Shown piece after piece: positions 26,647 through 51,702 of a stretch of 64,000 nt of DNA. Position 1 is the stretch's first letter. Each line of letters opens with the position of its first letter. Made by a program: the position numbers and the translations under genes. The notes under the pieces are model-generated. The model saw only the letters and a program-made list of their open reading frames with translations, searched no databases and was not told the origin of the DNA. Source of the DNA: Halococcus saccharolyticus DSM 5350 (GTDB lineage: Archaea; Halobacteriota; Halobacteria; Halobacteriales; Halococcaceae); assembly GCF_000336915.1 (NCBI RefSeq), contig NZ_AOMD01000012.1, positions 1-64,000 on the forward strand. The letters are read 5' to 3'.

Positions 26647-26708
26647 GGGGCGAACGCCGCTTCTCAGGGCTTAGCCGAAGTTCTCGTACTTTCCAATGGT
26701 GCGGAACA

Positions 26709-26755
26709 GCTACCTGTTGAAATCGGCGTGCAAGATTCAGAGCGTGTATCGGTCA
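26709..26755 (-). repeat. Dispersed short repeat, copy 3 (left edge of the main island)
   Basis: On the minus strand this reads GACCGATACACGCTCTGAAT, then CTTGCACGCCGATTTCAAC and AGGTAGC. The same order of words occurs at 51792-51835 and 50163-50210 in the opposite orientation. It sits exactly where high-GC backbone changes to AT-rich sequence. Confidence 0.55.
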
Positions 26756-30726: not shown

Positions 30727-31259
30727 CGAGAGGTGCGCCTCAACGATCGTTCTATCAGCATCATTTAACGAGAGTTCTGCGAGGAACTCTCGCCCCGTTG
30801 GCCGAAGAGTTCGCTGCCGTAGGCGTTATCGGTCCGCTTGATGACAGCTCTCACGCGATTTTTCTCAGCTGTCCGCTCTTCGACCAGCGACTTTCTGGTT
30901 CGGACGAGATCCCGCAGCGTGCGGATCTCGTCCGAGGGAACGTAGCTCTCGGCGAGCATATCCACCCGAAGCATGTGGGCGAGGCATTTGGCGTCGATCC
31001 GATCGGTCTTGACCGTCGCATCGGCGATCTCCCTGTTCTTTGATGGGTTGACGAGTGTAACGTCGAGATGCTCGTCGAGCATCTCGTACACCGGGCGGTA
31101 GTGGCCGGACGCCTCGATGGCAGCTTCACCATCGGCGTACTGTTCGGCGAGTTGGTCGAGACGGTCGTTTGGTAAGCGAATCTCATCGTGCAAGTTGCCG
31201 TCGTGGACGACGACGGCAACTTGGGAGTATCGTGCGTGAGTGTCTATTCCGGGGTACAT
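30646..31259 (-). pseudogene. IS110 family transposase, frameshifted and 3' truncated
   Basis: N-terminal part of an IS110 transposase (the RuvC-like DEDD domain). It starts YPGIDTHARYSQVAVV with the first catalytic Asp, has EASGHYRPVYEML, and KTDRIDAKCLAHML with the later acidic residues. Near 30807 the frame shifts: FGQRGESSSQ replaces what would be FGPTGREFL, explained by loss of one C in a GGCC(C)AACGG stretch. The original reading continues in the next frame (EFLAELSLNDADRTIVEAHL) to about 30646, where homology ends and the C-terminal domain is missing. The element cannot transpose by itself. Confidence 0.85.
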
Positions 31260-31284
31260 AGGACGCCTCCGTTGGGACTGTGGC

Positions 31285-31421
31285 GTGAACGAGAGATCCT
31301 CCTATACGTGCTCGGTGGCACAAGATTCCGCGTCTTATCACGGCCTCGGACCATTCTCTGGTATCGTGCTGGTCACACTGGCTGTATCGCGGTCTCAGTC
31401 AGTCCCTAGTGCCTCGTTCAC
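31285..31421 (-). ncRNA. Candidate IS110 bridge RNA in the element's leader
   Basis: On the minus strand, 25 bases before the transposase start, a 137-base segment is closed by GTGAACGAG (31421-31413) pairing perfectly with CTCGTTCAC (31293-31285). Inside it CCGCG (31392-31388) pairs with CGCGG (31332-31328), leaving internal loops on both sides. IS110-group elements are known to carry a structured bridge RNA upstream of the transposase. Position, size and stem-with-loops layout fit; the loops have not been matched to donor or target sequences. Confidence 0.45.
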
Positions 31422-31436
31422 GCTTTAGGGTCTTAG

Positions 31437-31475
31437 GTGCGAGATTTTCATGGATTCTCTATATCTTGCACTTGG
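31437..31475 (+). repeat. Dispersed short repeat, copy 4
   Basis: GTGCGAGAT (31437-31445) and ATATCTTGCAC (31461-31471) form imperfect inverted arms, and TCTCTATATCTTGCAC resembles the core of the copy at 51792. It lies in the 357-base non-coding stretch between the IS110 remnant and the DUF4386-like gene. That stretch otherwise holds a CCTCGTTCAC/GTGAACGAGG inverted pair at 31412-31421 and 31595-31604, and no gene I can support. Confidence 0.4.
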
Positions 31476-31616
31476 CCTTTGCCGGTATGTCTTACCTCTT
31501 ATCGATCAATAACGGGATTTTGGTTGTGATATCTAACAATTGGTCTCTACAAGAGACACGCTGGGGTAGTTGAAACAATTCGCCTCCTCACGGGGTGAAC
31601 GAGGGAAGTTTCTTGA

Positions 31617-37914: not shown

Positions 37915-38295
37915 TTAGTAAGTCTCGACGTCGAGGTCGGCGACACGGGCGAACTCCTCGACGTTTCGGGTGAGAACACGCGAGTCCGCACTCTCGACAG
38001 CGGTCGCCGCTATCAGTGAATCAATGTCGCCGATCGGTTCGCCCTGGCCGTCAAGCCTGCGCTGGATAGACAGCGCTCGGCGTGACTCGGTACGACCAGG
38101 GGGGAGAACGACCATCGACGCGAGTATCTCGTCGAAACGGGCGTATTCACTCTCACGGAGTCCGATACCCGTCTCATACACTGTGAGCGGTGAAACAGCG
38201 ACCGGGGTCTCTCCCTCAATGAGATCGGCGAGTGCGTCCTCCGCCGCGTCGAGTTGATCGAGCAGGTCAATCAGAAACGTCGTATCGAGTAACAT
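37915..38295 (-). CDS. vapC: PIN-domain toxin (VapC-like)
   Basis: A 126-residue PIN-domain ribonuclease. Acidic residues expected in the active site are Asp4 (LDTTFLIDLL), Glu41 (TVYETGIG) and Asp90/Asp92 (IGDIDSLIAATA). VapC toxins cut tRNA or rRNA when the antitoxin is degraded. The upstream gene (38317-38682, 21 bases away) is a winged-helix protein and probably the antitoxin or regulator; a classical VapB is not seen. A broken small gene follows four bases downstream. Confidence 0.85.
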   Translation of the reverse strand: MLLDTTFLIDLLDQLDAAEDALADLIEGETPVAVSPLTVYETGIGLRESEYARFDEILASMVVLPPGRTESRRALSIQRRLDGQGEPIGDIDSLIAATAVESADSRVLTRNVEEFARVADLDVETY

Positions 38296-38316
38296 CTAGT
38301 CCTCTTTTCGATCGGC

Positions 38317-38682
38317 TCACCGAGTGTCCATCCGATCGTTGAACTCCTCGCGGAACTCCCGTGAACGCCTCTTGACGCGCTCCGCTCTCTCCTCGTCGAC
38401 GAGACCGACCAGCTCGCGGAGCGGTTCGGCGGACCCTCCCCGCGACCGTTCACTGTCAGTCCGCCACCACACGACTCTCCCCGCGGTTTTTCTGCGAGAG
38501 ACGCGTCCTTTTTCGTGCAACTCTTTGAGCTTTCGCCGGGCGGTCTCACGCGAACACCCGAGCGCGTCGGCGACATCGCCACTCGTGACGACCGGCCCCT
38601 CAACCTCGTTGAACACCTCGACCACGGCGGCGAGCGTGACCGACTCGATGAACTCGCCCGAGTCACTTCGGTTGCGGCTCAT
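38317..38682 (-). CDS. Winged-helix DNA-binding protein, likely antitoxin/regulator
   Basis: A 121-residue protein. Residues about 15-75 form a winged helix: LAAVVEVFNEVEGPVVTSGDVADALG, then CSRETARRKLKELHEKG as recognition helix, and a beta wing RKTAGRVVWWR. The C-terminal 45 residues are charged and helical (EERAERVKRRSREFREEF), which could bind the PIN toxin. It is the first gene of a leftward unit with the PIN gene. The antitoxin role is inferred from position only. Confidence 0.75.
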   Translation of the reverse strand: MSRNRSDSGEFIESVTLAAVVEVFNEVEGPVVTSGDVADALGCSRETARRKLKELHEKGRVSRRKTAGRVVWWRTDSERSRGGSAEPLRELVGLVDEERAERVKRRSREFREEFNDRMDTR

Positions 38683-49766: not shown

Positions 49767-50153
49767 ATGGACCCACGGACGTTCCTGCGTGTCGAGGGAC
49801 TGGCCGCGTTGACAATCGCGCTAAGTGGCTATTTCACGCTCAACGGGCCGATTTGGATGTTGATCGTCCTTGGGCTGGCTCCGGATCTGTCGATGATCGG
49901 GTACCTCGTTGGTCCTCGGCTCGGCAGTCTGACCTACAACGTTGTCCATACGTATACGCTGCCGCTTGCTCTCGGTTCCATCGGCTACTGGGGCGACATC
50001 CGACTGGCCCTCCTCGTCGCACTGATCTGGATCGGCCATATCGGCGTGGACCGATTCGTCGGCTACGGCCTCAAATTTGAAACCGGATTCAAAGACACGC
50101 ATCTCTCTACCCAGCCCGCTCCGATTGATAGGTTTACCCAGTCCGATCAGTAG
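49767..50153 (+). CDS. DUF4260 family membrane protein
   Basis: A 128-residue protein with four short hydrophobic helices and the DUF4260 pattern: LRVEGLAALTIALSGYF, LGLAPDLSMIGYLVGPRLGSLTYNVVHTY, then ALIWIGHIGVDRFVGYGLKFETGFKDTHL. The His and Asp residues within and next to helices (PDLSM, HIGVDR) are the conserved ones I know of; function unknown. ATG 49767 is the obvious start. Confidence 0.88.
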   Translation: MDPRTFLRVEGLAALTIALSGYFTLNGPIWMLIVLGLAPDLSMIGYLVGPRLGSLTYNVVHTYTLPLALGSIGYWGDIRLALLVALIWIGHIGVDRFVGYGLKFETGFKDTHLSTQPAPIDRFTQSDQ

Positions 50154-50162
50154 CCGATTTGC

Positions 50163-50210
50163 TGAATAGATCTTCTGTATCTTGTACGCCGATTTTGGCA
50201 GATAGCCGAT
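50163..50210 (+). repeat. Dispersed short repeat, copy 9
   Basis: ATAGATCTTCTGTATCTTGT then ACGCCGATTTTGGCAGATAG CC matches the right part of copy 3 (CTTGCACGCCGATTT, then CAGGTAGC) and copy 10. It begins ten bases after the DUF4260 stop. Confidence 0.5.
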
Positions 50211-50381
50211 CTGTGATAGTGGAAAGTACGAAGACTTCAGCGAATCCCTATAGAACATATGCCCGCACCCCATGCTGACTGTTCTATGACATCCTCATAG
50301 ATGGTTATGAATGAGGAATCAACCCAACTGATCTCTACTTAGACTATCAAAGAAACAACTGAATCCGACGAACGTTTACCC

Positions 50382-50528
50382 GGAAAGAGTTGATTAGCGG
50401 GAGTCCACCACGGATCCATGACAGACGATGCTGGTGGAAGCCAACTCTAACTTCCATTTGGAATGAGTTGATGTGCCAAAATCTCACCACGAGGACACAT
50501 GGTGGCTCAGGGCCAACTCTAACCCTTC
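50382..50528. repeat. Two tandem stem-loop units (candidate ncRNA)
   Basis: Two units of about 70 bases, 50382-50455 and 50460-50528. Each begins GGAAAGAGTTG or GGAATGAGTTG and ends with the identical 12-mer GCCAACTCTAAC, so the ends pair (GAGTTG with CAACTC). Inside unit 1 TCCACCA (50404-50410) pairs with TGGTGGA (50432-50438); inside unit 2 TCACCA (50484-50489) pairs with TGGTGG (50500-50505), one G-U. The connecting bases differ, so structure is kept while sequence changes. The 676-base gap 50154-50829 holds this and short-repeat copy 9, and no gene I can support. Confidence 0.6.
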
Positions 50529-50829
50529 GCGTTGGTCAACAGTAGTTGTCTTATCAGCCAAATATTCGCTCGAACACCTCCATTTCTGCTTTGATCACCT
50601 CACTTCTACACACTTCTCTTTGATATATTAGCTCTTTCGGTCGTTTATGACTTGTTGCCAAGCGGTCGGATCAGGGTGGGGTTGGAGGGCGATCGCTGGT
50701 AATTCGTCAGAAAGTGGGTGGCATAACTGAAAATCTTGGTATATGGAAGAGAGTCCGGAAAAATATGAACAATTGGGCCGAAATACGTTTAAACTCTGGT
50801 ATCTAGTCCGATATCGTAGTGATAAACGC

Positions 50830-51702
50830 ATGAACGATGTAAAAGGGAGCGAAGAAAAATACAGTGTTAGTCAGAGTTATCTCGGGCAGAAAAATGGGTT
50901 TTTGACATCCACTGCTGAATTGCAAGCGATTCGTTCCGAGGTGGTCACATTCATCCGGGACAACGTCGAGGATACCGCGGTAGTCGCGATGAGTGGGGGG
51001 ATCGACTCGACGCTGACTGCAGCATTAGCAGTCGAAGCAATCGGCAGTGAAAACGTGATGGCGCTCTCGCTCCCCTGTAAAAAGACGGACGATGAACACA
51101 CTACCGACGTACAGACGATCGCAGAAGGTCTTGGCGTCGAGTATCACTCGGTTTCGATTCGGCCCCTCCTCGATCTCTTCGAGGACCACATCGCGCCTGC
51201 GCTCGATCCCGCCGGCGATCGAGGGTCAATCGGGAACGTGATGGCGCGAATGCGGATGATGTGCGCGTACTACGCATCGAATGTTGGCAATCGACGCGTG
51301 CTTGGGACGAGCAATCGATCGGAGCTACTGCTTGGATACTTCACAAAACACGGAGATGGTGCAGCGGATCTGTATCCATTGGGTGAGTTCTACAAGACTG
51401 AGGTTCACGCCCTCGCGGATTTCATTGGGCTTCCGCAGCGAATCGTCCACAAAGAGCCGACTGCGGGCCTTTGGACCGGCCAGACTGACGAAGCTGATCT
51501 CGGTGCATCATACGATGTACTCGATCCAATTCTTCGATCGTTCGTCGATGAAGACGCGGATGCCACGACTATTGCCGACGAGGTGGATGTCCCCCAACAG
51601 TTCGTTGAGGATATTATCAAACGGTATTACGATAACCGGCACAAGCGTTCCATGGCCTCGACGCTTGAACTCAAAGATCGAGAATCCAGCGTATCCACCT
51701 GA
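50830..51702 (+). CDS. nadE: NH3-dependent NAD+ synthetase
   Basis: NAD synthetase, 290 residues, converting deamido-NAD to NAD with ammonia and ATP. The PP-loop SGGIDS is at residues 55-60. GTSNRSELLLGYFTKHGDGAADLYPLGEFYKTEV carries the substrate-binding and Mg2+-binding loops and is typical. No glutaminase domain is present. ATG 50830 is chosen because the upstream 29 codons (to ATG 50743) look unlike coding sequence, but the longer form cannot be excluded. AT-rich upstream codons contrast with the core, so the gene may have been moved into the island. Confidence 0.88.
   Translation: MNDVKGSEEKYSVSQSYLGQKNGFLTSTAELQAIRSEVVTFIRDNVEDTAVVAMSGGIDSTLTAALAVEAIGSENVMALSLPCKKTDDEHTTDVQTIAEGLGVEYHSVSIRPLLDLFEDHIAPALDPAGDRGSIGNVMARMRMMCAYYASNVGNRRVLGTSNRSELLLGYFTKHGDGAADLYPLGEFYKTEVHALADFIGLPQRIVHKEPTAGLWTGQTDEADLGASYDVLDPILRSFVDEDADATTIADEVDVPQQFVEDIIKRYYDNRHKRSMASTLELKDRESSVST

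What the first reader, a model, noticed from the sequence alone, without database searches (positions are those of the whole stretch)
50382..50528. Two tandem stem-loops with conserved ends and changed interiors
Two adjacent units of about 70 bases share the paired ends GAGTTG...CCAACTCTAAC and an inner CACCA/TGGTG stem, while the bases between differ in sequence and length. Keeping pairing while sequence changes suggests selection on RNA structure. The units lie in a gap with no gene, about 300 bases before nadE. They match no RNA class I know.
Basis: partly seen in the sequence, partly recalled or inferred. Interest (0 to 1): 0.58.

Follow-up and report, generated by a model that had tools for sequence, protein, structure and literature searches.

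The report
Duplicated hairpin sequence before second nadE
A short hairpin-forming sequence has been copied side by side in a spacer of one salt-loving archaeon; the copies are real and their paired ends are unchanged, but no relative was found elsewhere, so a working RNA is possible and not shown.

Summary
The two units are real: u1 50387-50451 and u2 50465-50523. They are a diverged tandem duplication (local alignment 54; best of 2000 shuffles 36.5). Each can form an outer stem GAGTTG/CAACTC and an inner stem CACCA/TGGTG. All 22 arm positions are identical and no pair has a compensatory change; only the unpaired parts differ (9 mismatches, 16 gaps). That contrast hints at constraint on the arms (p = 0.007 without gaps, post hoc alignment), but folding is only weakly better than shuffles (z -1.0 to -2.3). 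Covariance searches found only these two copies in 392 order-level and 391 class-level genomes at E 0.1. Pattern scans gave chance-like matches; of 30 nadE loci only the window's own has it. No Rfam match; H/ACA and C/D signatures are absent. It sits in a low-GC region beside a dispersed repeat. Best reading: a lineage-specific two-hairpin RNA candidate without known partner. Neutral debris is nearly as likely. Modest interest.

The parts
50387..50451 (+). unit 1: outer stem GAGTTG/CAACTC, inner stem CCACCA/TGGTGG, 3' tail TAAC
   Evidence: sequence and fold; alignment to unit 2
50465..50523 (+). unit 2: same stems, shorter apical loop, longer 3' internal loop, tail TAAC
50441..50470 (+). junction palindrome CAACTC-TAAC-TTCC-ATTT-GGAA-T-GAGTTG, an alternative hairpin that competes with the two-unit fold
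   Evidence: -8.0 kcal/mol, z -2.48; used in the whole-region fold
50368..50381 (+). promoter-like BRE/TATA sequence just before unit 1 (inferred, weak)
   Evidence: top 0.03% of window positions under a motif learned from 239 upstream regions; about 0.4 such sites expected by chance in the 611 bases scored
50743..51702 (+). NAD synthase gene (second nadE copy); start codon uncertain, in-frame ATG at 50830
   Evidence: another nadE on contig C34 of the same genome
49767..50153 (+). DUF4260 gene upstream of the spacer

Best explanation
A lineage-specific structured-RNA candidate: one imperfect palindrome was duplicated in tandem, and the two copies have since diverged in their unpaired parts while their stem arms stayed the same. 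If transcribed, each copy folds as a hairpin with an asymmetric internal loop; the shared stems would be the protein- or processing-recognition part, and the different internal and apical loops the part that is free to vary. Shown: the duplication, the identical arms, the possible pairing, the absence of detectable relatives. Inferred: transcription, strand, selection on pairing, any partner. It would be one of the many intergenic small RNAs of haloarchaea rather than a nadE leader, because promoter-like sites nearer to nadE lie downstream of it (weak sites).
For: Duplication beyond chance; 22/22 arm positions kept against 23 of 32 aligned non-arm positions plus 16 gaps; spacing between half-sites differs between the units (inner arms 21 and 10 nt apart), which a hairpin tolerates better than a rigid operator; z -1.96/-1.21 (+) and -1.03/-2.22 (-) for single units, -1.65/-2.29 for the region; reading frames across it match no protein family credibly. 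Intergenic sRNAs are common in haloarchaea (PMC3956466, PMC6560208: search listing and start of abstract only).
Against: No compensatory change; no second occurrence in the genome, none in 9 other genus members nor in the other genomes searched; folding energies close to shuffles; the whole region prefers a single long hairpin that pairs unit 1 with unit 2 over two separate hairpins; no transcript evidence could be examined; the arm/non-arm test uses a hand-checked alignment and arms chosen after seeing them.
Confidence: 0.38

Rival explanations
1. Neutral debris: a short palindrome duplicated by slippage or recombination in an accessory region that is decaying, with arms kept alike by hairpin-mediated correction or by recent age, no function.
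For: No homologue anywhere searched; low-GC region 26-52 kb at 0.51-0.60 against about 0.66 around it; truncated methyltransferase and IS110 fragments in that region; a dispersed repeat in the same spacer.
Against: Arms unchanged while 9 of 32 aligned non-arm positions differ.
Confidence: 0.35
2. DNA-level operator pair: four GAGTTG-type and four CACCA-type half-sites bound by a regulator near a promoter.
For: All eight half-sites identical between units; a promoter-like site at 50368-50381 directly before unit 1.
Against: Half-site spacings differ between the units and are not in helical register (read from coordinates); the promoter-like score is expected about 0.4 times by chance in the stretch scored; no gene starts just downstream of it.
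Confidence: 0.12
3. Remnant or end of a small mobile element (MITE-like foldback).
For: Palindromic, about 145 bp, one long imperfect hairpin possible; lies next to a multi-copy dispersed repeat.
Against: Single place in its genome and none elsewhere, whereas such elements are usually multi-copy; no flanking target duplication was recognised.
Confidence: 0.1
4. Orphan dual-guide RNA of the IS110 bridge-RNA or TIGR stem-loop kind: constant stems, two variable internal-loop sides per unit acting as split guides.
For: Two stem-loops with a long 5' and a shorter 3' internal-loop side resemble the published bridge-RNA layout (PMC11208160, passages) and stem-loop TIGR units (PMC12045711, passages); an IS110 fragment lies 19 kb away.
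Against: No recombinase or Tas gene adjacent; no IS110 non-coding end among 10 fetched haloarchaeal elements has such tandem arms and the model finds none in the 4 of them it was run on; loop segments have no convincing match nearby (best of six, shuffle fraction 0.032); motif order UG-loop-CCA is the reverse of the published one.
Confidence: 0.03

Closest known systems
Haloarchaeal intergenic sRNAs (e.g. sRNA132 of Haloferax volcanii)
   Same: intergenic, no convincing open frame
   Different: no transcript known here; no target; two tandem hairpins
Haloarchaeal H/ACA guide hairpins (HP1/HP2, PMC2584109, passages read)
   Same: hairpin with an internal loop, roughly similar size (size recalled)
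   Different: no ANA box after the stem, no target better than shuffled guides, not found in other haloarchaea
IS110 bridge RNA / TIGR stem-loop array
   Same: stems with internal-loop sides that vary
   Different: no recombinase or Tas gene adjacent, motif order reversed, only two units, no target found

Membership tests
Archaeal H/ACA guide RNA | ANA box directly 3' of the lower stem | tested here: not met
   both units are followed by TAACTT / TAACCC, no A-N-A
Archaeal H/ACA guide RNA | internal-loop guide complementary to rRNA around a U | tested here: not met
   u1 none; u2 one U with 10 pairs (LSU 2605, 5+5), but 67 of 100 shuffled u2 guides do as well
Archaeal H/ACA guide RNA | K-turn or K-loop in the upper part | tested here: inconclusive
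   UGA...GA in the u1 apical loop, none in the u2 apical loop
Box C/D guide RNA | C box RTGATGA and D box CTGA | tested here: not met
   no C box within one mismatch and no D box on +; on - only a CTGA followed by a one-mismatch C-like word in u2, i.e. in the wrong order
Any Rfam family, NAD-type riboswitches included | covariance-model match | tested here: not met
   0 matches at gathering in the window; only one chance match (E 8.5), outside the units, at E up to 10 in the spacer
IS110 bridge RNA | in the non-coding end of an IS110 element | tested here: not met
   neighbouring genes are DUF4260 and NAD synthase; the IS110 fragment is at 30768-31259
TIGR array | adjacent Tas (Nop-domain) gene | tested here: inconclusive
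   no Nop domain among the 22 window genes given to Pfam (26 proteins with four spacer frames); not every ORF of the window and not the whole contig was scanned
TIGR array | box C (CCA) before and box D (UG) after each spacer | tested here: not met
   read from the sequence: order is UG-loop-CCA on both strands; feature taken from PMC12045711
MITE | multiple copies | tested here: not met
   one place in the genome
Conserved structured RNA | homologues with compensatory changes | tested here: not met
   no homologue; 0 compensatory changes between the two units

The most novel reading that the evidence does not exclude
The two hairpins are the constant scaffold of a small dual-guide RNA of an undescribed haloarchaeal system: the stems are recognised by one protein, and the differing internal-loop sides pair with two different targets. 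Nothing here excludes a trans-acting partner elsewhere in the genome.
Probability: 0.03. Interest if true: 0.75.

Novelty: new member of a known kind. Interest (0 to 1): 0.2.

Why it matters
If it is a working RNA it would be a lineage-restricted haloarchaeal sRNA with an internal duplication, a way to see which parts of such an RNA are held and which may drift. If not, it is a caution: identical stems in a tandem duplicate look like conserved structure without being covariation.

Tried and rejected
H/ACA and C/D guides: the first idea, because unit 2 has a guide-like match to 23S rRNA in the peptidyl-transferase region (position recalled); rejected after shuffles and for lack of an ANA box.

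nadE leader or riboswitch: no Rfam match; 30 nadE loci from the order search (the window's own L007 and 29 others, of 57 places in 56 genomes) searched with the model: only the window's own units, plus one 13-bit match (E 0.74) downstream of nadE in L008.

Coding repeat: both spacings (72 and 78) are multiples of three and open frames of 60-62 codons run through both strands, but no credible Pfam, PHROGs or plasmid tblastn match. A 41-base, 84% DNA match in another genome (L253) lies inside a gene there; at E 7e-4 per genome about 0.1 such matches are expected over the 146 genomes, so I took it as chance.

Similarity that I thought I saw upstream of the closest nadE relative (L008): the best alignment scored 30 against a shuffle maximum of 28, but at a different stretch, outside the units.

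Pattern hits: 32 of 392 genomes, 38 places of which two are the window's own; the loci printed show no exact GAGTTG arm except in the window, three others only within one mismatch. Not every place had a locus. Viral patterns gave 3, 27 and 9 stretches; all 39 scored with the model, none at E 0.1. Species genomes: 99 stretches, 80 listed with titles and none of those haloarchaeal, all 99 scored, none at E 0.1. Two weak class-level matches (19.9 and 18.9 bits, E 0.31 and 0.63) were read and dropped because they do not show both stems.

Full report
The observation. The units lie at 50387-50451 and 50465-50523, in the spacer between a DUF4260 gene ending at 50153 and a NAD synthase gene whose longest ORF starts at 50743 and which has an in-frame ATG at 50830. 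Aligned, they read GGAAWGAGTTGAT..GC...A.TC.CACCACG ... TGGTGG ... GCCAACTCTAAC. They are copies of one ancestral unit: local alignment score 54 against at most 36.5 in 2000 shuffled pairs; among 2554 adjacent window pairs of the 64 kb this place ranks second. The bare architecture is less remarkable: 1 in the window, 4 instances in 20 shuffled windows.

The inference of structure. In the paired bases the sequence does not change. Eleven pairs (22 positions) are identical in both units; a twelfth is C-G in one and U-G in the other by sequence. In the counting alignment A3, whose loops I had edited and in which that position reads C in both rows, 0 of 12 pairs vary. The rest has 23 matches, 9 mismatches and 16 gap columns, Fisher p 0.007 without gaps and 6e-6 counting gaps as changes. 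The alignment was set by hand and the arms were chosen after they had been seen, so this is a hint of constraint and no more. Folding: single units z -1.96 and -1.21 on +, -1.03 and -2.22 on -; the junction palindrome -2.48; the 151-base region -1.65 on + and -2.29 on -. The best fold of the region is one long hairpin pairing unit 1 with unit 2, not two hairpins.

Search for relatives. Blastn of the 156 bases found no second copy in the own genome (3.4 Mb, 36 contigs; the other three matches are 14-18 bases, E 0.87 or worse) nor in the other 9 genomes of the genus (two matches of 18-21 bases, E 0.5 or worse). A covariance model of the two units (R1, seeds edited by me) finds both at 55.5 and 54.1 bits and no other match at E 0.1 in 392 genomes of the order; in 391 genomes of the class, overlapping that set, two more matches at E 0.31 and 0.63 that do not show both stems. 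With so many genomes the tool uses stricter filters, so weak relatives may be lost. The tandem pattern occurs in 1 of 18 family-level genomes, the own one. Pattern scans of the order, of viral contigs and of species genomes gave matches that look like chance, checked. Strains very near the window's genome may be left out of the collections, so conservation within the species is untested. Of 30 nadE loci from the order search, only the window's own has the units.

What it is not. Rfam: none. H/ACA: no ANA box, and guide-to-rRNA matches no better than shuffled guides (the features are those given in PMC2584109, passages read). C/D: no boxes. Protein: four reading frames through it gave nothing credible in Pfam or PHROGs, and the two of them tried in plasmid tblastn nothing better than E 1. 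IS110 bridge RNA and TIGR arrays were considered because two hairpins with a shared frame and different internal-loop sides fit their published layouts (PMC11208160 and PMC12045711, passages read); there is no adjacent recombinase or Tas gene, none of 10 haloarchaeal IS110 elements fetched from plasmids shows such tandem arms, the model finds none in the four of these it was run on, and the UG/CCA order is reversed.

Setting. The window has a low-GC stretch from about 26 to 52 kb (0.51-0.60 against about 0.66) with an IS110 fragment, a truncated methyltransferase and several regulators. The same spacer holds a dispersed repeat (50174-50253) that has other copies in this genome and genus. This fits recently acquired or decaying DNA, so absence from relatives does not by itself mean lack of function.

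Mechanism. I commit, at 0.38, to a lineage-specific small structured RNA: constant stems as the recognition part, loops free to diverge. Steps shown: duplication, arm identity, potential pairing. Steps inferred: transcription, strand, selection, partner. A promoter-like site at 50368-50381 would start a + strand transcript inside unit 1, given the usual distance between TATA box and start (recalled), which does not favour a transcript covering both units from that site; it is also near chance. Neutral debris (0.35) is almost as likely.

Literature. Five paper searches ran; none of the titles and abstract starts they listed names such an element. That is not a proof of absence from print, since the library holds open-licence papers only and the words searched were few.

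Noticed in passing
50174-50253 (+) and 26666-26741 (-): A dispersed repeat of about 80 bases ending in AATCCCTATAG, with copies at 91% and 86% on another contig of the genome and in other genus members; weaker partial matches in other genera and in haloarchaeal plasmids. The two window copies stand in inverted orientation near the two borders of the low-GC region.
   Followed up: partly
50267-50311: Short motif (C)TGTTCTATGACAYCCTC shared with stretches of several other haloarchaeal genomes.
   Followed up: no
30768-31520 (-): IS110 transposase N-terminal fragment, up to 91% identical to plasmid elements over its first 156 residues; its upstream non-coding end is conserved with relatives and is a candidate bridge-RNA region.
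   Followed up: partly
26000-52000: Low-GC, probably accessory region inside a contig of about 0.66 GC.
   Followed up: partly
50743-51702: Second NAD synthase gene, 42% identical to another copy on contig C34; relatives at E 1e-80 or better in 56 of 392 order genomes, own included.
   Followed up: partly
50471-50483 and 50191-50203: The 5' internal-loop side of unit 2 is complementary to a stretch 280 bases upstream (10 bases contiguous); best of six loop segments tested, shuffle fraction 0.032, so not significant.
   Followed up: yes
37915-38682 (-): PIN-domain protein next to a small helix-turn-helix protein, possibly a toxin-antitoxin pair.
   Followed up: no
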